Shown here in pieces: positions 12,934 to 26,379 of a stretch of 64,000 nt of DNA (positions are counted from its first letter, which is position 1; each line of letters opens with the position of its first letter). A model generated the notes under the pieces. That model was not told the DNA's origin. It saw only the letters and a list, made by a program, of their open reading frames with translations, and searched no databases. The DNA comes from Pythium myriotylum. Lineage: Eukaryota; Oomycota; Peronosporomycetes; Pythiales; Pythiaceae. The position numbers were made by a program, and so were the translations under genes. The DNA lies in the NCBI GenBank assembly GCA_023091665.1, contig JALJCQ010000015.1, positions 930,001 through 994,000 on the forward strand. The letters are read 5' to 3'.

Positions 12934-13359
12934 ATGAAGGTGTACACGGTTCTCCTCCTCGCTCTCGCGGCTTGCGTCGCTTGCGCCCAGGGCCAAGACA
13001 CGGCCGCGACTGCTGAGAAGCCCAAGAACAGCATCAACCAAGTCAGCAAAGATGACAATGGATCCAACCGCTTCAAGGTCTCACGTCCACGCACGGGTCG
13101 CATGCTCGACGAGGAGCCTGCGGAGACTCGCGCGACGACTCCGCCTCCCGCGAACTTCGGCATCAACCAAGTCAGCAAGGACGAGAACGGCTCGGACCGC
13201 TTCAAGGTCTCGCGTCCTCGCACGGGTCGCAAGCTTCGGGACGAAGGTGAGCCGACTTCTGCCGAGTCGCCAGCCACGTACGGAGTGAACCAAGTCAGCA
13301 AAGACGAGAACGGATCAGATCGCTTCAAGATCGAGCGTCCTCGCACCGGTCGCGAGTGA
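12934..13359 (+). CDS. secreted triple-repeat precursor of the RTGR family (member A)
   Basis: A 141-residue protein with a signal peptide (about 1-19, ending CVACA). Three near-identical 23-residue blocks follow at about 34-56, 77-99 and 118-140, each of the form NQVSKDxNGSxRF...RPRTGR. Spacers of 18-20 residues are rich in Glu, Ala, Thr and Pro. The first two blocks run into MLDEE and KLRDE, so the sequence RKLRDE at 99-104 resembles an RxLR plus acidic motif. The third block ends the protein (RTGRE). A signal peptide, spacers and identical basic-ended repeats are typical of a precursor cut into several peptides, but processing is inferred. It heads a row of related single-block genes on the same strand. 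I know no named family with this motif. Confidence 0.85.
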   Translation: MKVYTVLLLALAACVACAQGQDTAATAEKPKNSINQVSKDDNGSNRFKVSRPRTGRMLDEEPAETRATTPPPANFGINQVSKDENGSDRFKVSRPRTGRKLRDEGEPTSAESPATYGVNQVSKDENGSDRFKIERPRTGRE

Positions 13360-13717
13360 ACAGTATTCCAAAATCCAGCTGCAAAGGAGGAATCCACTTG
13401 AGATTGCCATTCCATGATTGAGAACTGGTCATACAGTTCGAATTTGTGCTTGATTTGCTTGCGTGTTGGTCTGGCTTGTCCAGGTTGGAGAAGACAATGT
13501 GACTGAGGGGCACCAATGTGGACTGCCTCCACGGAAGCTCTGGCTTTACACCCAAGCTCTCCTCCAACACTGTACCAAACAGTCACTACATCCAAGTGCG
13601 TCACCCACCAACTTGCCGCTGGGGATTTGCGGTCGGTAAAGTCAGCACGCAAAGGACTTCGCGGATATGATCTGTCTGGATCTGAGAAGATTGCTGCGAT
13701 GAAGTCACTATCGATGC

Positions 13718-13735
13718 TTGTTCATTCCCACACAC
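13718..13735 (+). promoter_or_regulatory. initiator-like core promoter of member B
   Basis: The sequence TTGTTCATTCCCACA resembles the oomycete initiator (GCTCATTYYNCAWTTT) and lies about 50 bases before the ATG. Equivalent CTCATTCTCA and TTTCATTCACACA elements occur at the same place before members C (about 15430) and D (about 17556). Confidence 0.5.
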
Positions 13736-13779
13736 TCCAAAATTCTCCTTCATCTTCACACAAGAACCCAGTTTGCACA

Positions 13780-14034
13780 ATGAAAGTGTGCACGGCTGCA
13801 GTCTCCGCACTCGTCATGTTCGCCCTCTTTGCATCGGCTCTTGGCGATCATACGGTCTCAGGTGTTTTGCAAACACCTAGAAACAAGTCACTCCGAGGGG
13901 AAGATACTCCAGCGACTGTCAGAACACCGAGCTCGACCGTGGCTGAGCGATCTGCGACAGCAAACCAAGTTGGCGTCGACCCTTTTGCAAGTCGTCGATT
14001 TGAGATCTCTCGTGATCGTACTGGTCGTGAATGA
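13780..14034 (+). CDS. small secreted RTGR-family protein (member B)
   Basis: 84 residues. A signal peptide (about 1-22) with a long Ala/Leu/Phe core is followed by a short variable region with KSLRGED at 36-42, then a Thr/Ser-rich linker (TPATV, SSTV). The C-terminal block closes with RFEISRDRTGRE. The frame is open upstream to 13516, but the signal peptide fixes the start at 13780, just after the initiator-like element. The (S)LR-acidic motif some 15 residues after the signal peptide sits where RxLR motifs occur in oomycete effectors. It lacks the first Arg of a strict RxLR, so this is resemblance only. Closest relatives are members C and D. Confidence 0.82.
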   Translation: MKVCTAAVSALVMFALFASALGDHTVSGVLQTPRNKSLRGEDTPATVRTPSSTVAERSATANQVGVDPFASRRFEISRDRTGRE

Positions 14035-14963
14035 GCTTGTGACTCCAACGCGTTTGATGCAGCGGAGTCGACAACTGGTTGCGGCTGTTGCGAAAGGAAA
14101 CGTGCTTTTGTAGATGCTTCGTATTGTACAGATGAACTTTTCTTGAATTCGAACGACTCAAATGTATGCTATTAATGGATGTGACGTTGGTGTGAACTGG
14201 TATTGGGGTACTACGAAGCGCTGTCGCTTTTTGAAGGAGTGGCCATGAAACGTCACCTCCGTTACCACCAGTTCATACGTTATTGACGACAAATCCGTCC
14301 CCAAAGCTGTCGAAGTGAGCTTTCGCGCAAAGGATATACTTCGAGGTACCTGCCTCAAAAGCCCGTACAGCATCTGGCCAGCCTCCGAGAATTGCGCGGG
14401 AAGAACCGAAACATGGAGGACGATATTTTCATCCTCCTTGTTTCCATGTTATGGAGCTAAGGCGACGTTCACCAGAACAAAGCCACCCGGCCTCGGCAGA
14501 CGCAATCTAAAGTTGTACGGCATAAACACAATCTAAGAGACAGAAGACTGCTCCTTGGCATATCGCACAGCATGAGAAGACAGTTGAAAAGGAGTCTATT
14601 GGCACAGCGAGTGTGACTTAAAATGGCGGTCGAGTTCGAAAAGTTCCGATACTGAAGCGAGATGCAATGCACTAAAGATTTTGGGTGCAAGTTTTAGTAC
14701 AAGGGAGGTCAGCATAACGTCGTGCCCTGTCCCGATCCTACAATGAAGAGAATATAACACTCCAACGCCGTGTCTCGAGCATGTCGTGCTGAGTTGCACG
14801 CGCCAATTATGATTTCAGCACATTGCAAGATTTGTCGCTTCACGTGTTCTACTAACCGCAGTTGGGGGATTCGTAGCACAACAACGTTCCACACGTAGAA
14901 AATTGGAGTCTTGCGCTCGAGTCTTATTGCGACCGAATGTGAAGAGTTTGTGCCGCTGACATT
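14035..14963. other. spacer between duplication units
   Basis: No gene seen. Open frames here are short and without motif. The spacer may be sequence inserted between units 1 and 2. Confidence 0.45.
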
Positions 14964-15041
14964 GGCATCAACCAAGTGGTCAAAGACGAGAACAGATCAG
15001 ACCGCTTCAAGATCGAGCGTCCTCGCACCGGTCGCGAATAA
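14964..15041 (+). pseudogene. relic of the last repeat of member A
   Basis: These 78 bases encode one complete RTGR block (GINQVVKDENRSDRF...RPRTGRE) and a stop codon, with no signal peptide or start upstream. It copies the end of member A with a few changes and marks the left edge of duplication unit 2, so the breakpoint lay inside member A's coding sequence. Confidence 0.8.
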
Positions 15042-15488
15042 ACAATGTTCCAAAATCTAGCTGCAAAGGAGGAATCTACTTGAAATTGCCACTCCATGAT
15101 TGAGAACTGGTCATAGTATAGTGTACGCATTCGTGCTTGATTTGTTTGCGTGTTGGTCTGACTTGTCTAGGTTGGAGAAGACAACGTGACTCAGGGTCAC
15201 AAATGACTGCCTTCGCGGGATGGTCTGGCTTTCCACCTGGGCTTTTCATCTGGATACACCGCCGCCACCATGGAGTCGCCCAACTCCCAAGAGTCTTTAC
15301 TGGACACTTCCTCACTCATTGCAGAATTGCAGTAGATAGAGTCGGCACAAAATAGAAAGGACTTCCCGATTATGCCATGTCTGGATCGGAGAAGATTGCT
15401 GTCACCAAGTCACTGCTGTATCGGTGCCTGCTCATTCTCAGGCATTCGGCAATTCCGATTCATCCTCGTACGAGACCCCGTTCAGATC

Positions 15489-15731
15489 ATGAAAGTATAC
15501 GCCGCTGCACTCTCCGCACTCGTCATGTTTGCCCTCTTCACTTTGGCTCATGGCAAAGATGGTCAGAAACCAGCTAAGAGCAACTCACTCCGAAACGAAG
15601 AAGCGCCCGCGACTGTCGCAACATCAGTCGCACTTTTAGGTGGACGAGTCACAGGAATTGGTCGAGTTGAGATCGACCCGGACGCAAGCCGACGATTCGA
15701 GATCTCCCGTGATCGTACCGGTCGCGAGTGA
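15489..15731 (+). CDS. small secreted RTGR-family protein (member C)
   Basis: 80 residues. A signal peptide (about 1-22) nearly identical in plan to that of member B is followed by NSLRNEEAPATV at about 32-43, a short linker and a C-terminal block ending in RFEISRDRTGRE. The last 12 residues equal those of member B, while the linker between the LR motif and the block differs strongly. So the two ends are conserved and the middle is free to change. The start at 15489 is set by the signal peptide. It lies in duplication unit 2 on the same strand as A, B and D. Confidence 0.82.
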   Translation: MKVYAAALSALVMFALFTLAHGKDGQKPAKSNSLRNEEAPATVATSVALLGGRVTGIGRVEIDPDASRRFEISRDRTGRE

Positions 15732-16200
15732 GCAAGTGTTCCTAGCACGCTTGTAATCCTACATCATCGTAGTTCTTCCTGATGATGCAATGAAGTCTAT
15801 TGAGTTCAACCGCTGTGACTTCTAATAGCTTTAATGGGCTTGGTTCACTGTCCTAGGTCTCATCGTGCTCGGCCCTAAGGGTCAATCTTCGCAGTTCTTG
15901 TGCTATTGTGCTTATGCATAGCATTACTCCGAGTGGCTGTTGCGAGACCTAGGTGTCGAGAACGAGCGTGGTAGCTTTAGGCAATGCCTGAACAATAAGC
16001 CCAGATACCGTAGTGTTGTCATGGAAGGAAACCACGGGCTTTTGGCGTTTGGAAGATTGTAGTGGGTACAGGCTCATGAAGAGCTTTGCCCACGTCCATT
16101 GCTGAGGATGGTCGCCAAGAGGTGATCATCTCCATCAGACTCTGAGACGGGCGGTGCTATGCACAACACCGCCGTCGGAGAGAACAGCAAAGACTCGCAC

Positions 16201-16272
16201 GGCCGTCGTCGGCATATGGGCCGTCGTCGGCATAATGGCCGCCGTCGGCACAACGGCCGCCGTCGGATGACA
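16201..16272 (+). repeat. four-copy 18-base tandem repeat
   Basis: Four head-to-tail copies of a unit like GGCCGTCGTCGGCATAAT with a few substitutions; a partial copy (GCCGTCGGAG) lies just before at about 16171. Confidence 0.8.
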
Positions 16273-17145
16273 GTTGTGAGCGACAAGCAATAGAATAGGA
16301 CAGATTCCATTAAGCACTGAAGTGCCGAGTATACGTCGGCACAACCTTAGAGAGCTCAGCCAGCTCTCTAAACTTTCGCTTTCCGTGGATTCACTACAAG
16401 ATGCAAACGAAGGCTTCCTGGTATAGTGTGCGCCAATAGATCCGTGAAACTCAATCCACGATTGTAGTCGGTCCGTCCGGTACGACGAGAAGTCTATTGA
16501 GTGTTATAAGATTTTCTGCTCTCGGTACTAGGGTAGAGTAAAACCCTACTTCCATCATCATCTTCTTCTTCACAGTAGTCGGCGTTATGGAGGGCAATCG
16601 CCTCGGAATTCGGCCAGACCAAATGCTGTCAAAGAATCGAGTTCTCCAAGAGAGACTGAAGGCCAAGCTCTCAACACCTTCTGCATACAAGCTGCTTGGA
16701 GTGCAGGGAATGGGTCCGCGACAGAGCTGGATATGTTGCGCAGTCATGCGAGAGGCCAAGTCGCTCTCAAACAGCGTGAACTTGGGATCAAAGGCGGTCA
16801 GCGACCGAGCACTTCGACCCTCTCATGAAAGCTTAACCAAAGGATAAGACTTCAGCGAAGTCTGGCCACTCGGTGAGGTTTGTTTTCATCGCACCACCAG
16901 TGAATCGAAGCGAGACTACATAACCTTTCCACCTGCAAAAATCGAAGTTCCACGTTCAAGATAACGCTGCTTGATTACTTCCGAGTGCGAATATTTTTTT
17001 AAATCGAAGCTCCGACTCATCAATGAGAGAATTCTTTTGTGATTGAGTTGCGTTGTGGATGGGCGCGAGTCGTAAAGTACATGCGTTTAGCGACAAGGCC
17101 TCACTACGAATTCATACAGTACTTGGCACATCACGGGCAACATTT

Positions 17146-17186
17146 GTTCAGACGCTGATACATCACTGATGTATCTGTGTCTGAAC
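17146..17186. repeat. 20-bp hairpin with two mismatches
   Basis: The arms 17146-17165 and 17167-17186 are reverse complements except at two positions, with one base between. It ends about 20 bases before duplication unit 3 begins. Confidence 0.8.
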
Positions 17187-17205
17187 AGCTCAAGCTCTCT
17201 TCTGA

Positions 17206-17878
17206 ATCCAGTCCAACAGGGAAAATTCACTTGAAATCGCCGTTTGGTGATAAGGAAGTGGTCATATGTTTTGGTGGTTGATTCGTCCCCGTGTTAGTCT
17301 GGATTGTCCACGTTGGAGAAGACAACGAGACTAAGGGTCACCAATGTAGACTGCCTCCACGGAGGCTCTGGCTTTCCACCCAGATTTTTCTTCCAGATGC
17401 CATGCTGGTATTGAAAGCATCATGTTGGCTCTGGACACGCCTCGTTCAAAGGGGATTTGTTGTTGGTAAAGTCAGTACAGAATGGAAAGGACTTCGCGGA
17501 AATGATCTATCCGGATGTGAGAAGATTGCTGCCATGAAGTCACTGCCGATGGCTTTTCATTCACACACACTTCAGAATTCTCCTCCATCCTCGCACAAGA
17601 CTCCAGTTCAGACAATGAAATTCTACACGACTGCAGTCTCCGCACTCGTCGTTTTCGCCCTCTTTACATCGGCTCACGACGAACGTACGGCCTCAGAGGC
17701 TCAGAGACCATCAAGACTTCGAAGCAATAACGCTCCAGCAACCGTCAAACCATCGAATGCAACGCAGGCTGAACAACCTGCATCGAAGACCACTGGCCAA
17801 GTCGCTAGTCAAGTTGCCGTCGACCCAAATGCTAGTGATCGGTTCGAGATCTCTCGTGGTCGTACTGGTCGTGAATAA
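17206..17878 (+). repeat. segmental duplication unit 3 (spacer plus member D)
   Basis: It matches the spacer and gene parts of units 1 and 2 but lacks the tail of member A. The recognisable start is near the AATTCACTTGAAATCGCC element; the GAGAAGACAACG and GAGAAGATTGCTGCCATGAAGTCACT elements are shared. Confidence 0.78.
17615..17878 (+). CDS. small secreted RTGR-family protein (member D)
   Basis: 87 residues. A signal peptide (about 1-20) is followed by PSRLRSNNAPATV near residues 32-44, a Gln/Ala/Thr-rich linker and a C-terminal block ending in RFEISRGRTGRE. Here the LR motif is SRLR and has lost the acidic residues seen in B and C, while the APATV that follows is kept. The frame is open upstream to 17291, but the duplicated initiator-like element (about 17556) and the signal peptide support the ATG at 17615. 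Confidence 0.82.
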   Translation: MKFYTTAVSALVVFALFTSAHDERTASEAQRPSRLRSNNAPATVKPSNATQAEQPASKTTGQVASQVAVDPNASDRFEISRGRTGRE

Positions 17879-18425
17879 GTTAGTGTCTCCAACGTAATTG
17901 TTGTGACGCAACATCTTGAGTGCTCGACTACTGTGTTACTGTCCGCCGCATGTTTGTATGCTTCTATCCACTGTAAGTCCAACGCACTCGTGCGTCCCAC
18001 ACTTCGTAGTGAACGAATCCAACGTGCTTTATGGCATTTCGATTGACATAGTCTCCACTTTTCTGTGACGAAATAAAATCCTCGAGTACGACTATGCGTG
18101 CAGTATTAGGGCGTCCACATTTTCGAAGGAAACACTTCAAAATGACGGCAACGTTACCAGTAAATCGGCAGCAGACTTCAGCGTATCCGATTATCACGAC
18201 CGTCCAACACGATACCTCCACGCTGCAACCACTGGCAAACCCGCAGAGTGAAATCCGTCAGCACCTGCTCTCACCCTTGTTCCGGTGCTGTAGGAAACAA
18301 AGCAGTGAGGATGATATGAAACCAAAGTAGTCTCGTATTCTTCCCGAAATCAATCTCAGCAAACTGTCATTTTACGCTTCGTGGACTTCAGGTACATCGG
18401 GTGGGGTTAGACTGAAAGTGCGTGC
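17879..18425. other. intergenic
   Basis: No gene seen; the next recognisable sequence is retroelement debris. Confidence 0.45.
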
Positions 18426-18925
18426 GTGGGCATGTACAGCGGCTTGCAGTCACAGAAAGACAGTTGGAATTGGAGACCTCTAGAAGAGATCCAGATCTCA
18501 CTCAACACGGCTGACGAGCTCGAACAGCTTCGACACGCAATTATCATCGTCGACACTACGAACGCAAACGCGAACACCGTCGAGGGGGCCGAATATCGCG
18601 GTTCCCTCGACGGCCTCCAAGCAGCGATGGAGAACAACTGGCACGACTCAACCGACATAGGGGACAGCGCCATCATTCTTCGCCAGATGCGTGAGTGGGC
18701 CCCTAAGAGCACTAGCTCCGACCGCTCTAATGCAGAGCTTGTCCCCTCGCCGATCTCGTCGACGTCCGCCAATGGTGCCATCGCGTGCATGCCCACTACA
18801 GCGTGGCAGGCACCTTGGAAAATCACGCGATGGACACGATACAAACCATCCAGGTCCATCACCCTTCTCGCGGGATCTGCCGTGCAGACCTGGTTCGGTT
18901 CGCGAACTCCGATTTACGACCCTAG
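18426..18925 (+). mobile_element. decayed retrotransposon RNase H fragment
   Basis: In one frame this reads a late RNase H segment (VEGAEYRGSLDGLQAA, then DIGDSAIILRQMREW). After a frameshift near 18740 another frame continues with the C-terminal RNase H pattern (LADLVDVRQWCHRVHAHY, ending QVHHPS). The same pattern, AEYRGLLDGL then VGDSxLIxRQM, is known from retroelement RNase H domains. The N-terminal catalytic strand is not visible. It is a broken fragment in plus orientation, opposite to the other fragments further on. Confidence 0.7.
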
Positions 18926-19147
18926 CTATCTAGCCAAGTTGACACAGGGTAATGGCAGGAGTACTCTGGGAGCAACGGCTATTAGAGAACATGAATTGCG
19001 CTCATTAGACTCAAACCTTCATCACAAAGTAGTAGAATGGCCACCACAGTATCGCTCCATAATCCTGCAACGTCTGGTGGCTTCGGAACGGAACCTGTTC
19101 GGGCTCTGTAGCCATGATGAAGTGATGATACGTGAAACATGGCAAGT

Positions 19148-19495
19148 TCACTGACGTCCTACACGCGGTCGTTCCTTCTTGAATCGGTCACTGCCGCCTC
19201 GGTCAATGTCAACACGAGTGAATTCAAAGCCTTCGCCCTGAGGCTTTACCTTTGCCGGCGCGTCTTCATCCTGAGGTTGCGTTTTCACGGGGGCGACTTG
19301 TGGTGTGCCGAATGTCATCGGAACAACGTTTCGATCCCCAAAAGTCGCCGTGGTGTCTTCTTGTCGGGGGGAATTGTCGATGTAGCGATTGAAACCGCCG
19401 TTGAACTGCTCGAATCCCTGATTGCCGAAGTCTTGCCCTCGAACGGACTCGGAGAGCCCAAGAATGGCGAGAGTGACGATGGTGCAGAGTTTCAT
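19148..19495 (-). CDS. small secreted RTGR-family protein (member E)
   Basis: 115 residues on the minus strand. A signal peptide (about 1-20, ending SVRG) is followed by a QDFGNQGFEQ segment, then SPRQEDTTATF near 42-52, a linker with DEDAPAKVKPQGE, and a C-terminal block ending RFKKERPRVGRQ. The motif differs from the main form by V for T and Q for the last E. It is the inverted paralogue of member F at 23524: the two agree over almost the whole length and share upstream sequence (CGTAGAGCG...CAGCGAATCA before the ATG). The retroelement debris lies between them. Confidence 0.82.
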   Translation of the reverse strand: MKLCTIVTLAILGLSESVRGQDFGNQGFEQFNGGFNRYIDNSPRQEDTTATFGDRNVVPMTFGTPQVAPVKTQPQDEDAPAKVKPQGEGFEFTRVDIDRGGSDRFKKERPRVGRQ

Positions 19496-20329
19496 GTCGA
19501 TGATTCGCTGATTGGCGCTCTACGAGCTTTGGGGACGATCTCGAAATGGCGAGAGCAGGCAATGGCAGGCATGGGGTCTTGATCCAGATACGACGCTGCT
19601 GAACAGTTGAATCGGGAGAATTTTCCTTCCCTTGATATCGCCCAGAAGTTTGTCGATGACGGCCACCTTGATGAGTACAATGTCGAGTGATCCCAGCAAC
19701 ACACTGCGCGCCTCCGGAGGCTCAAACTGTATTTTGGAGCGCTTGAAGCACAAGAAGCCCAATCTTTTGCGGAACTAAGAGAACGCGCCGCGTGTTCTCT
19801 CAGTTCTGCAAAAGATTGTGCCCGCGTGTCCAAGACGCGGGCAAGGGTCTGAATCGATTTAGGTGCCGAACGCAATTTAGGTTCACACATCCCCATGAAA
19901 ATCTGTGTGGATATTCGTACGTAATGTCGTTCAATCGGTTCATTTGAATCCGCATTCGTTTCTGCCAGATCGAGTGATATACGTGCTCTTTCACGGTGGA
20001 GAGGGTACCTCCAGTCAGTGTGTTGGACTCGTATTGCACTCGCAGACCCATGTAGTGTGCTGCTCTTTTCGTACAGCTGAAGCACGAGCTGCGCGCTATC
20101 ATCCCACTCTATCAACTAGTACACAAGGGCAGGAGCCAGTGCGCTCGTGTGCCGTAGATAGTTGACAGACGCGAGTTATATCATCATCAATGTGAGGTCT
20201 ATTGGTTTACTCGTCTAGAAACCTATAGTCGGCGTGAAGCGCCTGGTTAGGATTGAAGTCCTATTCTGTAATGCGCAATGTCGCTGCTAAGTAGCGCAGC
20301 AATTTGCTTGTGCTCTGGTCGATGAGTTG
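19496..20329. other. intergenic with hairpin
   Basis: Upstream region of member E, then non-coding sequence with a strong hairpin at 19761-19817. A 207-codon minus-strand frame here has no signal peptide or motif and covers the hairpin, so I do not call it a gene. Confidence 0.45.
19761..19817. repeat. long imperfect hairpin, arms about 27-29 bases
   Basis: The arms 19761-19787 and 19789-19817 are near-perfect reverse complements (AATCTTTTGCGGAACT... against ...AGTTCTGCAAAAGATT) with almost no loop. A further CCCGCG...CGCGGG pair follows near 19822-19842. Confidence 0.85.
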
Positions 20330-20915
20330 GGTGAAGAACCTGACTGCTACGTCCCTCGTCCATGGCGAGGTTGGCCGCTGCGTCTACCATACGGTTGGCT
20401 GCTCGCGGGTGATGTTTTCATGTGCGGATGCCAAGGATGTCCGCTAAACGTCGAGCGACTGCATACGAGCGCTGGAGGCTCTGGTTCAGAGGTGCCTTGT
20501 ACCTCTTCATTAGCTGGATAATGAGCATACTATCGCCGACCACCTCTAGTGGCGTCCATTGGAACTGGGTGGCTGCGGTCAACCCGGTGGCGTGGTCCCT
20601 GTACTCTACTTGGTTATTTATGGTCGTCCGCGCGGCGTGTGATATTGCTGCTGTGCACACAACCGTTGCGTGGGTAGCTTCACCAGTAATGCGTTCAATT
20701 ACTGCTCCTGAGCCCCCAGGCCCAAGGTTTCCGCGTGAGCCGCCGTGGAAGAAAAGAAGGTAGCGCGTGTCTCCTGGTACCAATGCGAGGTCAGGTAGAG
20801 ACTCGTCTTGTCTCCACTGCGGTTGTCTGAGGATGTCGAGATTTGCCGCTGTGTGCGGCATGGCTGCGTTGTGTGCGGTTCGACGCCATCGTAAGTCACC
20901 GAGTGACGCCATCAA
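20330..20915 (-). mobile_element. LINE-type retrotransposon RNase H domain, degenerate
   Basis: The minus-strand frame from 20915 to 20418 shows an RNase H fold: the first strand LLFFHGGSRGNLGPGGSGAV, then NNQVEYRDHATGL and VGDSMLIIQLM. After a frame change the C-terminal segment (ANRMVDAAANLAMDEG) continues to about 20330. The first catalytic Asp, normally FDGGSRGNPGPGG, is His here, so the enzyme would be inactive. It belongs to a non-LTR element whose zf-RVT part lies just upstream at 21024-21472. Confidence 0.8.
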
Positions 20916-20960
20916 ACGCGTGTGCAGAAGCCCGTATATATGCTCCGTATTCCAAATCTG

Positions 20961-21002
20961 GTCAGGAATCCTGACCCGATCATCCTGACTCAGGATGATC
21001 GG
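20961..21002. repeat. two adjacent palindromes
   Basis: 20961-20975 (GTCAGGAATCCTGAC) is a palindrome with one central base. It is followed at once by 20976-20988 paired with 20990-21002, again a perfect 13-bp hairpin. They sit between the RNase H and zf-RVT remnants. Confidence 0.85.
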
Positions 21003-21023
21003 CTGAAGTCCGCCAGTTCCAAG

Positions 21024-21472
21024 TTATCTGGAGGCTGACGAGCACATGTTGTCTCCCACGAGCACATGTTGTCTCCCAGCTGCGCACACCGCTGCGTGCG
21101 TGGCGATGACTGCATCTTGTGACGGCAAAGGCAATCGCTGCATCTCGGGGTGAGTCCAGAGGAGGTCCGGGATAGCCGATAATCGAAGAGAAAAAATGTC
21201 AACTTTACTTGCGTCGAGCGTTGGCACGGCGTCGTACGACCAGAGGTATGTCCAGTGTGTCAGAAGATTGTTCCACACCAGCTGTGCCTTCGGGCACTCC
21301 CAAAAGATGTGGGCGTTACAGTATTCTTTGCTTCTGTGCCGTGGTTGATGCAGTGTGGGCATCCGACCCTTTGTTGAGTCCGGTCCCACAAGCTGAGCCG
21401 GTTCCCTTTGAGGCGTGCCAGTATGGCATGTTTGCTATTTCTTTCCAGGTGAGTAGTCCTGGGCATCAGCAA
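21024..21472 (-). mobile_element. LINE zf-RVT (reverse-transcriptase zinc-binding) fragment, frameshifted
   Basis: In one frame the sequence reads AILARLKGNRLSLWDR and GCPHC; in the overlapping frame it continues HIFWECPKAQLVW. Together these are the CxxC...H...C pattern of the zf-RVT domain that follows the reverse transcriptase in plant- and oomycete-type LINEs. A frameshift lies between the two halves near 21345. With 20330-20915 it gives the normal 3' order zf-RVT then RNase H. Confidence 0.75.
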
Positions 21473-22034
21473 TCACTGGGTCCTGGGCCTGCCAACGGTT
21501 GCGTCGTCCATCGTGTTCCTTGTCGGATTTGGCCTTGGCGGGGGCGAGCAATAAAGTCTTGGCTGAATGTGAGGTGAGGGCTTTTGCCTCGCTCTAAATA
21601 CCTCGAGGCTCGTCCAGCCACGGGTGCCTGTCGAATCGAACCGTTGGATCGCGTAGGTGGTGACGTGCTATTGGTGATGCTTCACTGGTCGACGTGACTC
21701 TGCTAACCGGGATGCGGATATCATCTACAGGGTTCCATTCGCAGGCACGAGTTACAGATACAAGGAGCAGGTTGTCGTCAACCCTTCGTCATTTCGATGA
21801 TTTTGGCTTTGGATGCTGACAAACGTCCGCGGGATTGGAGGTTGTACCGGTTAAGGTTCTGATTGAACGCCCAGTCGTGCCTGGGCGCGCTCATCGAATG
21901 CGTCTGTAAGCAGTAAATACCTAAAATGCTATTATTGCTCCTATTTGAACAAACTTCGTCAGCATTGGGAGACGGACAACTAATGTATTCTTCCAGGATG
22001 CGATGTCCTGCGATCATATCGCCGTAGTATACTA
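21473..22034. other. non-coding debris between element copies
   Basis: Probably more decayed retroelement sequence, but no motif can be read with confidence. Confidence 0.35.
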
Positions 22035-22280
22035 CTACCTCCACGAGTCACATTGTGCGTTGTGCGGATCTCCCGCTCCTCCTCGCCCTGGGTTGCCACG
22101 CGAGCCTCCATCGAAGAAGAGAACTCGCATCGGACCGACCAGCGTCGAGATGTTGGTGACAGGATCTTCAGATTCGTACAAGAGCCCCTGATACCTAGTG
22201 ATGATGGTGGCTGCGTAGTCCGGCGAATCCGGATGTCGTTCCAATCTGCCAAGCACATGATGGCAGTTCACTCTTTGCAC
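22035..22280 (-). mobile_element. second LINE RNase H fragment
   Basis: The frame ends in the first RNase H strand FFDGGSRGNPGRGGAG, here with the catalytic Asp intact, preceded by SEDPVTNISTL. It breaks off soon after by frameshift. It is a second copy of the same 3' arrangement, in the same orientation as the copy at 20330-21472. Confidence 0.75.
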
Positions 22281-22858
22281 GTGAGCCGCCTGCTGCTGTG
22301 ACCAGCATTGGAGTAGTCAGCCATGTTGTGTCTCCATGCGATAAGCACTACAAGTGTCTCCATCACAAGCTGTTGCCATACCCCAAGAGAATGTATGGCA
22401 CCTTGCCCATGTGGGCGTGGTGAGGCGGGTGTTAGCGTGCTAGAAAGTTGCAGACTGAGCTATTCTACCGGCCGCGCCGCTTCGCGTCCCGTTGGTATCT
22501 AAAATAAGACTGGGTAAGACGTATCCTCGCGTCTTACTCCGCGGAAACCGCAACATCCTCGCGGACTGCTCTGCTTGGAGTGCGGGACTCCTGTGTCATC
22601 GTCGGATGGGCGACACTTGCGGAGTGAGGGTAGTTTCCAGATCTTGGGCGGTGCGCGGGGTAGGCGGAGGCTGAAGACTGCAGCGAGGAAGTCAGTGGTG
22701 GATGCTGTGTCCGTCGTGGCCCAGAGCCCAAGGGAAGCCCACCGGAGCGCAGGATGGTCCAGAGAGATTGTTATTCCTAGCTATAGCTGTTCGCACAGAC
22801 GTAACGCAATAGACTCCAACTTTTATCATCACCAGAGAGATTGCGCTGCCGCGTATTC

Positions 22859-23125
22859 TCAGACGATCTGGAAGACCGAGCCGCCGTTGGAGCCTGCTGA
22901 GGGGCAGTGGGGGCACCCTCGTCGGTCGTGGAGCCGGTCCCAGCGCGAGAGTCTTGTCCTTTTGACTCGGAAGTAGATCAGTCGTTGTCTGTTAGAACGG
23001 TGCTGTAAGCGATGGATGTCTTCCCACGGTTCCAAGGACCAGACACCCTTTGATCGGCCTTGTTCGAGTCGACACTGTATTCTACAGCGTAGTGGTATCG
23101 CAGTGAATAGATTAAATCCATCCAC
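22859..23125 (-). mobile_element. second LINE zf-RVT fragment
   Basis: The frame shows LIYFRVKRTRLSRWDRLHDRRGCPHCPSAG, cut here into the two blocks VKRTRLSRWDR and GCPHC, matching LKGNRLSLWDR and GCPHC in the copy at 21260-21472. It lies about 0.6 kb upstream of the second RNase H piece, so two LINE 3' ends stand in tandem. Confidence 0.7.
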
Positions 23126-23160
23126 AAATTTTGTGGATGAAGAGATCTCCCGTATCCAAT

Positions 23161-23868
23161 GCTTTTCAGCGAGTTCCTCCTGTAAGTGTTCATCATCTAG
23201 AACATGAGCACTTCCTTACACTATTGATGCAGTATTCAGAGATAATACCTTCTCTACTTTTATAGTCGATTACATTTTCGTTGGCAGGGGAAACGAGCTC
23301 TGTACTAATCAACATGCTGATTTGGCAAATCTGCGGGCATCACGGGAAGGAGAATTCTCCTGATTCGACTGTTACTAGATGTGTCGAGAGTGTCCTTTAC
23401 TGCTGGTGGCATTCTTCATGAATGTCAACCTGGCTAGCTTTCATCATTACGAGATCTTCCTCGCACCACGCACCAAGTTTCACCCAGAGAAGTTCGTAGA
23501 GCGTCAACCAGCGAATCAAGGACATGAAAATCGGCATCATTCTCACTCTCGCCATTCTTGGACTCGCCGAGTCCGTCCGAGGGCAAGACTTCGGCAATCA
23601 GGGATTCGAGCAGCTCAACGGCGTTTTCAATCCCTATGTCGACAGTTCCCTCCGACACGAAGACACCACCGCGACGTTTGGGACTCAAAATGTCGTTCCG
23701 ATGACATTCGGCACGCCGGAAGTCGCCCCCGTGAAAATCCGACCTCAGGATGAAGACGCGCCGGCGAAGGTCAAGCCTCAGGGTGAGGTCTCTGCAGCTC
23801 AGGTTCGCATCGACCGAGTCGGCAGTGACCGATTCAAGAAGACACGAGAGCGTGTAGGACGTCAGTGA
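23161..23868 (+). repeat. tandem duplication unit carrying member F
   Basis: It begins with GCTTTTCAGCGAGTTCCTCC and contains ACTATTGAT...GAGATAA, ACGAGCTCTGT and CATGAATGTCAACCTGG elements. All recur in the same order in the unit at 24029. Confidence 0.8.
23524..23868 (+). CDS. small secreted RTGR-family protein (member F)
   Basis: 114 residues. A signal peptide (about 1-20, ending SVRG) is followed by QDFGNQGFEQLNG, then SLRHEDTTATF near residues 42-52, a DEDAPAKVKPQGE linker and a C-terminal block ending in RFKKTRERVGRQ. Here SLRHED is intact, whereas the inverted paralogue E has SPRQED at the same place. The final GRQ is shared by both. The upstream sequence, including a CATGAATGTCAACCTGG element and TTTCATCATTACGAGATC, is shared with member G. 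Confidence 0.85.
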   Translation: MKIGIILTLAILGLAESVRGQDFGNQGFEQLNGVFNPYVDSSLRHEDTTATFGTQNVVPMTFGTPEVAPVKIRPQDEDAPAKVKPQGEVSAAQVRIDRVGSDRFKKTRERVGRQ

Positions 23869-24028
23869 ACCCGCTATCCTATCCCTCCCTGCACTCCACC
23901 ATGGCTACACAGCTCGAACAGGTTCCGCGCCTACCAGACGTCGCGGGATTATGGAGTGGTGGGGAATGATACTATGGCACCCACAGGGTTGTAGTGGGTG
24001 GGTTTGTGAATGAACAGATCAATAATAC

Positions 24029-24352
24029 GCTTTCCAGCAAGTTCCTCCTGTAACTGTTGATCATCCGGAATGAGAACACTTCCTCAATTAAACTATTGAT
24101 ACAGCAATTGGAGATAACATCTCTGTTTTTTTAGCAGAGCGCGTTTTCGTCAGCAGGGAAATGAGACTCTGTGGATCGACAAATCTGTGGGTAACATGGA
24201 GGGAAGGAGGGTTCTCCCGATCCGACTGTTCAGATATGATAGGAGTACACTGTACTGGTAGCTTTCTCCATGAATGTCAACCTGGATTGCTTTCATCATT
24301 ACGAGATCGTCCCCGCACCACGCAACGAACTTCACCCAGCGAAACACGGACA
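24029..24352 (+). repeat. tandem duplication unit leading into member G
   Basis: The sequence from GCTTTCCAGCAAGTTCCTCC to the ATG of member G matches 23161-23523 with scattered substitutions and small indels. Confidence 0.8.
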
Positions 24353-24822
24353 TGAAAGTCTATGCTCTCGTCTTCCTCGTCATTTCAACTCTCACCGAGT
24401 CCGTTCAGGGACTAGACTTCAAGAGTCAGTTTGATCTTGTCAGCGACAGTTTCAAACCCGTCACGACCGGTTTCCGGGGACAAAAGGAGGCCCCGATGGC
24501 TTTCAAGTCTCGGGATGGGCCTCCCGCGAATATCCAGCCAGAGGGTGAATGAACACAGTACAAGACCAACCCGCATATACGTACGAGCAGAGCACCCTTA
24601 CCACGTGCAAATGAAGTCGACCTAAATAAATCTCCAGGGAGCTGACGCTCGGTGAGTCTGTCTTGACCGCCTGGGCGTCTAACTTCTTCGGTAACAGTAA
24701 TCAAAAGAAAGACCAAGCTGCAGTGGTTGCAACTCAAGTTGGCATCGACTTGCGTGGCATCGACCTGGGCGGCAGCGACCGATCCAAGATTAAACGAGGT
24801 CGGGAAGGTCACCAGTGAGCAC
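24352..24822 (+). CDS. RTGR-family member G, either spliced or decaying
   Basis: The continuous frame from 24352 to 24552 gives 66 residues: a signal peptide (about 1-20, SVQG) and a region like members E and F, stopping just after IQPEGE where F continues (VKPQGEV). About 170 bases on, a frame reads VVATQVGIDLRG...GSDRSKIKRGREGHQ and stops at about 24822, clearly a family C-terminal block. An intron at 24545-24723 (GTGAAT...CTGCAG, 179 nt) would join them in phase. That would be the only intron in the family and longer than others in the window, so a disrupted gene is as likely. The block is also poorer: RS for RF and GREGHQ for RTGRE. Confidence 0.6.
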
Positions 24823-25316
24823 GTCACACTTCCACACACGCGAAGCACACTACACTGTACCTCCCATGTTGCGTGATGAAAACCACCACCTCGTGTCACT
24901 CAACTCCTTGTTCGCGGACGTCGTGGACACAATCGCGATACGTCGCAGCAGCTCCATCGCTTGACATGCAACAAAGTGGCGAAGGAACTCGCCAACACTT
25001 CGCTTGGAGTTGCACGCTTGTATTGAGGCTGATGTCTGACTATTACCTCTGACTGTGAATGTCCGCTCGAGACGAAGCACCGACTCATCAAACTAGCACG
25101 GTAGTACATTTATTGTGGGTGAGAGATGTTGCGGATGCGTGCGAGTCGTAAAGTCGAGGAGAAGTCTACATGTGTTCGGCGATGTCCTACGTACTTGGAT
25201 GCCGTTGTGCTGATTCTTTCCTCACCCATGTTCTCCACGCACTGCTGCACCACTGTCCGTCATTCGGAAATCCTCCCCTTCCATCGCGCAAGGCTTGAAC
25301 CCGACTTGTCCCGAGC
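24823..25316. other. intergenic
   Basis: No gene seen; upstream region of member H. Confidence 0.45.
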
Positions 25317-25598
25317 ATGAAGATCTTCGCCATTCTCTCCGTTGTCGTTGCTGCCCTCGTATCGTCCGCTCGAGCGCAAGAGCAGGATTTCCCGGACTTT
25401 AGTGGGTTCGATCGGAACAACAACGGTCTCGATTCTTTCGGTGACGACACGCTTCCCACGGACAATCTCCTTCGACGAGAAGACCCCCCACCGACGGTCA
25501 AGGCACAGAGTAACTCAAGGCCTATGAGTCAGATTGCCGTCGACCCGAATGCCGGCCGTCGATTCGATGTCAGCCGCCAACGCACTGGCCGCGAGTGA
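25317..25598 (+). CDS. small secreted RTGR-family protein (member H)
   Basis: 93 residues. A signal peptide (about 1-20, ending ARA) is followed by an Asp/Asn/Phe-rich segment (DFPDFSGFDRNNNG) resembling the QDF...GF part of members E and F. Then come NLLRREDPPPTVKAQ near residues 50-64 and a C-terminal block ending in RFDVSRQRTGRE. It therefore links the two subgroups: its front resembles E/F while its end has the B/C/D form. The LLRRED stretch is the best RxLR-acidic look-alike among the single-block members, though the first position is Asn. Confidence 0.85.
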   Translation: MKIFAILSVVVAALVSSARAQEQDFPDFSGFDRNNNGLDSFGDDTLPTDNLLRREDPPPTVKAQSNSRPMSQIAVDPNAGRRFDVSRQRTGRE

Positions 25599-26013
25599 GC
25601 TCGCCGCTGTATCTGTACTGTACGCGGCCATGTTGGATGCAGTTGTTTGGCTAAATGTTATCCAGCTTAACGTATGCCTTATGGTGTCTTTTGTTCACTC
25701 CCTCATGCTTCGCCTATCCTTGAATAATCGACTGGTGTAGATTTTAGTCTGTTCATTTGATCTCAACAGGTGCCACCGGAGCTCAAGCTCGGAGTCAACA
25801 GCAGTAGCTTCTAAAGTAGCGGCCAACGCATTTCTCACAACGAACGGGGTGGACATTCTGCTATCCCAAGTTCGACGCCTGCCGTGACACTACTCTACAC
25901 TGTTCGAATCCGGAGCCGACACAGACCTCCTTGTAAATACGCTTGACACTAACACATAGGGCGCTCCTGCCTGCCTGTCTTGGGGCCAACTGAGCGGCGG
26001 CAACAGCGCCCGT
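25599..26013. other. intergenic
   Basis: A spacer between converging genes H and I; nothing recognised. Confidence 0.45.
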
Positions 26014-26379
26014 CTACTTGTGCAGTCTTGGCGACGGCGCCGTGTTCTCTTCTTCGGTTGTCAGCGAGCGACCCGTGCGCTGGCGCGTGAGCTGGAAGCG
26101 GCTGACGCCGTTTTCGTCCTTGGAGACCTGGCGGACGTCCTCGTTGCCGGTTTGCGGACGGAACTTGCCGATCTGGCCGTCGTTGTTGATGTCTTTGTCG
26201 ACGACGCCCTCGGCCGTGTACGTGACGTCGTTCGCGACGTTCTTGGCCGTGCTGACGACGCCCTTGACGATGCCGCGGACGTTGTCCATGAACTCGGCGT
26301 TGGCCTGGCCGCAGACAAGCACGAGCAGCCAGAGACACAGGAGCGCCACGCGCGACGAGGCCTTCTTGGTGATCGCCAT
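26014..26379 (-). CDS. small secreted RTGR-family protein (member I, divergent)
   Basis: 121 residues on the minus strand. A signal peptide or anchor (about 1-28, ending GQANA) is followed by an amphipathic stretch (FMDNVRGIVKGVVSTAKNV), a degenerate block (DINNDGQIGKFRPQTGNE, about 63-80) and a clear block (VRQVSKDENGVSRF...RQRTGR, about 82-104) like those of member A. After it the protein goes on with SLTTEEENTAPSP, so here the block is internal and is followed by an RxL-acidic stretch, as in A. High GC and codon bias differ from its AT-richer neighbours. The longer upstream frame (to 26547) lacks a signal peptide, so the ATG at 26379 is preferred. Confidence 0.8.
   Translation of the reverse strand: MAITKKASSRVALLCLWLLVLVCGQANAEFMDNVRGIVKGVVSTAKNVANDVTYTAEGVVDKDINNDGQIGKFRPQTGNEDVRQVSKDENGVSRFQLTRQRTGRSLTTEEENTAPSPRLHK

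What the first reader, a model, noticed from the sequence alone, without database searches (positions are those of the whole stretch)
12934..26379. A local family of secreted proteins that look like peptide precursors with a shared C-terminal block
Nine genes (A-I) have a signal peptide, a variable middle and a conserved block whose commonest end is RFxxSRxRTGRE. In seven of them it is the extreme C terminus (G only if spliced). Conserved ends and a free middle is the layout of secreted peptide hormones and plant-mimic peptides (CLE, CEP types). I know no named family with this block. Release of the block as a signal or effector peptide is inference.
Basis: partly seen in the sequence, partly recalled or inferred. 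Interest (0 to 1): 0.88.

Follow-up and report, generated by a model that had tools for sequence, protein, structure and literature searches.

The report
Oomycete secreted family with shared tail
A water-mould genome carries two clusters of small secreted-looking proteins that differ in much of their length but share one short tail, which is repeated three times in one protein and makes up about half of two others, so the tail is probably the working part, although nothing here shows that it is cut free or what it does.

Summary
Genes A-I exist at 12934-26379; each begins with a signal-peptide-like segment, and a ~25-residue block (xxQVxxDPxGSxRFxxSRxRTGRx) ends seven of them. A has three tandem blocks, I has its block internal, G is a decaying copy, and an orphan block lies at 14961-15038. 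New here: seven paralogues on another contig (C16:1412098-1442244), two of them (58 and 59 aa) little more than signal peptide plus block. Thirteen of 16 chosen starts have an oomycete initiator-like motif within 100 nt. The block matched no Pfam family or solved structure, and two models gave no confident fold. The protein database gave no relatives, though it holds Pythium, Lagenidium and Phytophthora proteins.

Best reading: the block is the functional unit of a lineage-restricted secreted family, and A is a three-copy precursor. Release as a peptide is plausible but unshown. By the tests made it is not a Kex2-processed repeat protein, an RXLR-EER or a YxSL[RK] protein. Internal blocks end in R-x-L, and five of 15 proteins carry LRx[EDQ][ED] upstream; both recall the cut oomycete RXLR site. 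Against the reading: E-F and J4-J2 show no block constraint, and block and middle do not differ significantly in pN/pS.

The parts
12934..13359 (+). gene A, 141 aa, signal-peptide-like start + three tandem blocks
13027..13104 (+). A block 1 (its last R begins R-M-L-D-E)
13156..13233 (+). A block 2 (its last R begins R-K-L-R-D, the only exact RXLR string among the 15 intact proteins)
13279..13356 (+). A block 3, C-terminal
13780..14034 (+). gene B, 84 aa from the chosen ATG, C-terminal block at 13954-14031
13891..13905 (+). LRGED motif of B
14961..15038 (+). orphan block: part of a 146-nt duplicate (91%) of A's 3' end, with no start codon or signal peptide in frame
15489..15731 (+). gene C, 80 aa from the chosen ATG, C-terminal block at 15651-15728; LRNEE at 15588-15602
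17615..17878 (+). gene D, 87 aa from the chosen ATG, C-terminal block at 17798-17875
19148..19495 (-). gene E, 115 aa, C-terminal block at 19151-19228; inverted duplicate of F
23524..23868 (+). gene F, 114 aa, C-terminal block at 23788-23865; LRHED at 23650-23664
24352..24552 (+). gene G, 66-aa ORF from the chosen ATG, signal-peptide-like start and middle only; tandem duplicate of F, apparently decaying
24757..24818 (+). degenerate block-like stretch downstream of G in another frame (invariant F lost)
25317..25598 (+). gene H, 93 aa, C-terminal block at 25518-25595; LRRED at 25470-25484
26014..26379 (-). gene I, 121 aa, internal block at 26065-26142; its last R begins R-S-L, and 17 residues follow that R

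Best explanation
A lineage-restricted family of small, cysteine-poor, probably disordered proteins exported by the default secretory route, whose working unit is the C-terminal ~25-residue block. Shown from sequence: the ORFs, signal-peptide-like starts, initiator-like motifs, the strict block in 16 of 17 copies in intact ORFs, three blocks in A, two nearly block-only members, and two gene clusters. Inferred (about 0.7): the block, not the middle, carries the function, as a short ligand- or binding-type element acting outside the cell. Inferred (about 0.35): it is cut from its precursor. In that case A yields three peptides, and the likeliest cut is at the R-x-L / LRxED sites that flank blocks, by an RXLR-type protease rather than Kex2. 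Whether the target is a host or the oomycete itself is open.
For: Block-only profiles find the other cluster both ways. The C15 profile finds 6 of 7 C16 proteins at E 0.0043 or better (J3 at 3.2). The C16 profile finds A, B, C, D, H, I and the orphan block at E 2.6e-5 or better, F at 0.023, and E only at 3.7 (best domain 0.27). J7 and J1 are 58 and 59 aa in all, of which the last 27 are the block. In A the linkers after blocks 1 and 2 begin RMLDE and RKLRD; I has R-S-L at the same place. Block dN/dS is 0.13-0.40 in the five pairs run among B, C, D, H; over six pairs pooled block pN/pS is 0.49, Fisher p 1e-4. No confident fold: A pLDDT 58.9, pTM 0.17; B 63.6, 0.23. Initiator-like YCATTY within 100 nt upstream of 13 of 16 chosen starts, background 9.3%. 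RXLR is reported to be cut between L and the second R, the motif being perhaps confined to disordered regions soon after the signal peptide (PMC11754927, abstract seen). A tandem precursor of this layout that is cut into active peptides exists in a nematode (GrCLE1; PMC4617103, passages seen).
Against: E-F and J4-J2 have relatively more replacement than silent change in the block (2.36 and 1.69, few counts). The pool of six pairs left out four of the ten pairs (B-D, C-D, B-H, J4-J2) because they reuse proteins of kept pairs; J4-J2 among them speaks against. Alignable middle codons are constrained too (pooled 0.70), and block versus middle does not differ significantly (p 0.17). J3 has lost the strict block, and G and the orphan block are decayed. 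No processing enzyme, transcript or peptide was seen. LRx[EDQ][ED] is in only 5 of 15 proteins, and B and C are close paralogues. Two of the three R-x-L junctions are in one protein. Signal peptides were judged by hydrophobicity and the -3/-1 rule only.
Confidence: 0.5

Rival explanations
1. The proteins act uncut: disordered, glycosylated small proteins of the cell surface or apoplast whose C-terminal block is a docking or wall-binding motif, A being a trivalent linker.
For: Middles of B, C, D look Thr/Ser/Pro-rich by eye, and those of J2-J6 hold 4-6 N-glycosylation sequons each. The block, in J3 a degenerate one, is C-terminal in 14 of 15 intact ORFs (I is the exception) and needs no cut there. 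No KR, RR or KK separates the blocks of A. A repeated wall-binding module in an oomycete surface protein has a precedent in CBEL (PMC4617103, passages seen).
Against: J1 and J7 have almost no middle and no sequons. Linkers in A and the tail in I share the R-x-L junction, which a plain docking motif does not need. CBEL repeats are 113 and 114 aa with named domains; this block is about 25 aa with no confident fold.
Confidence: 0.3
2. Host-delivered effectors of an RXLR-like kind: LRx[EDQ][ED] is a degenerate RXLR-EER processing site and the block is the effector part.
For: LRx[EDQ][ED] in 5 of 15 proteins, against a mean of 0.09 and a maximum of 3 proteins in 5000 shuffles; it starts at residues 25-52. 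RXLR cleavage place (PMC11754927 abstract).
Against: Exact RXLR in 1 of 15, at residue 99 and after a block; no EER. The highest-scoring named NAC relatives are Pythium and Lagenidium, and P. ultimum is reported to lack RXLR effectors (PMC2926784, passages seen). A, D, E, I and J2-J7 lack LRx[EDQ][ED].
Confidence: 0.12
3. A young orphan family that expands and decays by tandem duplication with little function.
For: Tandem and inverted duplications, decayed G and orphan block, degenerate J3, no relatives found elsewhere, no block constraint in E-F and J4-J2.
Against: Fifteen intact ORFs, initiator-like motifs at 13 of 16 starts, block recognisable across two contigs, pooled block pN/pS 0.49.
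Confidence: 0.08

Closest known systems
Fungal KEX2-processed repeat proteins (KEPs; PMC6339444, outline and passages seen)
   Same: Signal peptide; A has three near-identical repeats, the minimum number of repeats used in that survey.
   Different: KEPs are split at KR/RR/KK; the only dibasic pair in mature A is RK at residue 99. 14 of 15 members have one block. No Kex2/furin P domain was found in the genome (limited).
Nematode multi-CLE effectors such as GrCLE1 (PMC4617103, passages seen)
   Same: Tandem copies of a short motif with spacers in one secreted protein, cut into several peptides there.
   Different: 12-aa CLE motifs, host-processed and receptor-binding; here a ~25-aa block without the CLE consensus (recalled), and release not shown.
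Oomycete RXLR-EER effectors (PMC11754927, abstract and outline; PMC4617103, passages seen)
   Same: Small, secreted, duplicated; an LR-acidic motif after the signal peptide in 5 of 15; R-x-L beside blocks of A and I. About half of the RXLR effectors in one survey share degenerate C-terminal WYL motifs.
   Different: No RXLR in the N-terminal place, no EER. The block was not tested against WY/W motifs directly; Pfam gave nothing over cut-off.
YxSL[RK] family of Pythium ultimum and other oomycetes (PMC2926784, passages seen)
   Same: Secreted and small; SLR in B, C and F recalls SL[RK].
   Different: YxSL[RK] in 0 of 15. That family has a conserved N-terminal region and a highly variable C terminus; here the best conserved part is the C terminus.
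Aphanomyces small secreted proteins (PMC5907361, passages seen)
   Same: Species-restricted small secreted proteins, about 5% of them in clusters of 3-9 genes that look like duplicates.
   Different: Defined by size and lack of annotation; no shared C-terminal block in the passages that I saw.

Membership tests
KEX2-processed repeat proteins | at least three repeats | tested here: met
   A only, 1 of 15
KEX2-processed repeat proteins | KR, RR or KK sites between repeats | tested here: not met
   no KR, RR or KK in mature A; one RK. Rule taken from PMC6339444 passages
KEX2-processed repeat proteins | a Kex2/furin convertase in the genome | tested here: inconclusive
   PF01483: 0 matches in G000, control rang in 1 of 14; introns could hide it
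RXLR-EER effectors | RXLR shortly after the signal peptide | tested here: not met
   exact RXLR in 1 of 15, at residue 99 of A
RXLR-EER effectors | EER after RXLR | tested here: not met
   [DE]ER found only as DER at the signal-peptide edge of D, 1 of 15
YxSL[RK] family | YxSL[RK] motif | tested here: not met
   0 of 15
Known folded domain | Pfam family over its cut-off | tested here: not met
   0 of 9 window ORFs and 0 of the 6 C16 proteins given, of 7 (J3 not given)
Known folded domain | sequence match of the block to a solved structure | tested here: not met
   3 matches up to E 10, best E 0.85, 9-13 residues each
Peptide-hormone precursor | proteolytic release of the block | not testable with these tools
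   needs peptidomics
CLE / CEP plant-mimic peptides | CLE or CEP consensus in the block | tested here: not met
   by eye on the block alignment of 16 copies; consensus recalled, no call

The most novel reading that the evidence does not exclude
An oomycete multi-copy secreted peptide precursor family, which none of my paper searches turned up, in which near-identical peptides are laid out in tandem and cut apart at RXLR/PEXEL-like R-x-L sites by the export protease instead of Kex2, so that a known effector-processing site doubles as a prohormone cleavage site.
Probability: 0.12. Interest if true: 0.8.

Novelty: new variant of a known kind. Interest (0 to 1): 0.52.

Why it matters
The large oomycete effector families named in the passages that I saw (RXLR, CRN, YxSL[RK]; PMC2926784) are recognised by conserved N-terminal motifs. 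Here the best conserved part is a short C-terminal block, so motif-based surveys would probably miss the family. If the block is released, it would give Pythium-like oomycetes a peptide-ligand system and make the question of whether RXLR-like cleavage also matures peptides directly testable.

Tried and rejected
Pfam: no family over its cut-off; weak matches taken as chance. Solved structures: ribosomal protein S19 (twice) and a P450, 9-13 residue matches; taken as chance. Protein database with a full-length and a block-weighted alignment: nothing at E 1 and E 10, and none of the family's own proteins either; a NAC control showed that oomycete proteins are held. In leave-one-out runs the 15 members score between E 1e-34 and 2.7 at that database size, so a similarly close relative would have shown if it had been a candidate (shared exact words, fitting length; the tool does not say how it measures the length of an alignment query). 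Short or unannotated genes would be missed. Plasmids, protein mode, B only: none, as expected. Peptide amidation PF03712: no match, but no control rang, so uninformative. C11 array matched by J4 (best E 9.6e-4, 40 matches): low-complexity Thr/His sequence; 0 block matches in the 5 kb fetched. C14 and C22 hits of D (E 0.6): 0 block matches in the fetched 1 kb of each. Other hits off the two clusters had E 0.6 or worse. Only 9 of the 15 intact proteins were whole-genome queries (A, H, I, F, J7, J4, D, J1, J5), so a diverged member could be missed. Papers: ten searches (one search returned none) listed no title or abstract start on this block or on an oomycete multi-copy peptide precursor, and none of the 20 papers listed held the string RTGRE; the library lacks most subscription journals. 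Eight papers were opened in part; none was read whole. After the filing check I opened PMC4617103, which tempered my statement on layout: RXLR effectors often share C-terminal WYL motifs.
Full report
What is there. The window (G000:C15:930001-994000 of a 58.7 Mb, 55-contig genome) holds nine ORFs, A-I, at the reported place. Among named proteins the neighbouring NAC-alpha gene scores highest with Pythium oligandrum (83% identity), P. insidiosum (86%) and Lagenidium giganteum (82%); Globisporangium ultimum has 84% over a shorter stretch, and two unnamed metagenome proteins have 93% and 88%. The organism is thus a Pythium-like oomycete; the species was not identified.

The block. Eleven window copies align without gaps over 26 columns. 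With the second cluster the invariant positions are D, RF, R and G (16 aligned copies; the orphan block and J3 were left out of that alignment, and J3 breaks the pattern). The strict pattern occurs 11 times in the window's six frames (positions) against a mean of 0.125 in 40 resamples.

Starts. The frames of B, C, D and G reach back to an earlier ATG, and that of J5 too; I chose the ATG that begins a signal-peptide-like segment. All 15 intact proteins then have a hydrophobic segment near the N terminus and a possible cut site (no SignalP was run).

A second cluster. Nine of the 15 intact proteins were used as whole-genome queries. The only hits outside the window that I credit lie on C16:1412098-1442244: seven ORFs, J1-J7. 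Hits elsewhere had E 0.6 or worse, or were a low-complexity array on C11. J2-J6 have Asn/His/Thr-rich middles with 4-6 N-glycosylation sequons each and end in HTGDRx, HAGDRN in J3. J1 and J7 are 59 and 58 aa, signal peptide plus little more than the block. Block-only profiles of either cluster recover the other: 6 of 7 C16 proteins at E 0.0043 or better (J3 at 3.2); in the window A, B, C, D, H, I and the orphan block at E 2.6e-5 or better, F at 0.023, and E not convincingly (3.7, best domain 0.27). So the kinship does not rest on signal-peptide likeness.

How the cluster grew. A-B looks like a two-gene unit; parts and flanks of it recur at the orphan block + C and upstream of and within D. The orphan block copies A's 3' end (146 nt, 91%). 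E is an inverted duplicate of F (arms of 305 nt at 87% and 130 nt at 79%), and G a tandem duplicate of F.

Are they genes? An oomycete initiator-like YCATTY lies within 100 nt upstream of 13 of 16 chosen starts (15 intact ORFs and G; misses F, G, J5) against 9.3% of random 100-nt stretches of the window. In P. infestans the initiator is given as YCATTYY, later YCAYTYY, and inferred transcription starts lie a median of 50 nt from the ATG (PMC3599244, passages seen). Many of the 16 are recent relatives, so the count is not 16 independent events.

Selection. Block dN/dS is 0.13-0.40 for five pairs among B, C, D, H, but 2.36 for E-F and 1.69 for J4-J2 on few counts; J4-J6, J5-J3 and J1-J7 give 0.47, 0.45 and 0.64. 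Over six pairs (B-C, E-F, J4-J6, J5-J3, J1-J7, D-H; four of ten pairs, J4-J2 among them, left out because they reuse proteins) pN/pS is 0.49 in the block and 0.70 in alignable middle codons. Both are below 1, and the two do not differ significantly (p 0.17). The clearest sign of constraint is thus a nearly indel-free block at a fixed C-terminal place beside middles of very different length.

Processing signs. Mature A has no KR, RR or KK. Its blocks 1 and 2 run into RMLDE and RKLRD, and I continues R-S-L at the same place, so 3 of 3 internal blocks end in R-x-L, two of them in one protein. LRx[EDQ][ED] occurs upstream of the block in B, C, F, H and J1, 5 of 15, against a mean of 0.09 and a maximum of 3 proteins in 5000 shuffles, which ignore kinship. 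RXLR is reported to be cut between L and the second R (PMC11754927 abstract). That makes an RXLR-type cut a better candidate than Kex2, for which no P domain was found (control rang in 1 of 14, introns could hide it). All of this is inference from sequence.

Structure and relatives. AlphaFold models are of low confidence (A 58.9 / pTM 0.17; B 63.6 / 0.23; 8 rows in each alignment). In the B model the last 24 residues have a mean pLDDT of about 74, the highest part after the signal peptide, with one short helix: a weak hint that the block has some order. No Pfam family over its cut-off, credible solved-structure match or database relative was found.

Conclusion. A real family, unnamed as far as my searches reach, whose best conserved part is a short C-terminal block. 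The three-block and nearly block-only members make the block the best candidate for the working unit. That it is cut free, and that it mimics a plant peptide, remain unshown.

Noticed in passing
G000:C11:491283-552687: J4 hit 40 frames here, mostly about 1.25 kb apart, through Thr/His-rich low-complexity sequence; it looks like a tandem satellite, not a gene family.
   Followed up: partly
window 26014-26379 (gene I): I holds DKDINNDGQIG, which looks like an EF-hand or dockerin-type calcium loop (motif recalled), upstream of the block; Pfam gave no hit over cut-off.
   Followed up: no
C16:1416280-1429209 (L004, L005): Long retrotransposon reading frames (Copia- and Gypsy-like by appearance) lie between J3 and J4 of the second cluster.
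   Followed up: no
window 18432-21500: Fragments that look by eye like RNase H parts of retroelements lie between D and F, which may explain the scattered duplications.
   Followed up: no
C16:1400014-1402272 (L003): A large secreted-looking protein, SKN1/KRE6-like by appearance (recalled), lies about 10 kb before the second cluster.
   Followed up: no
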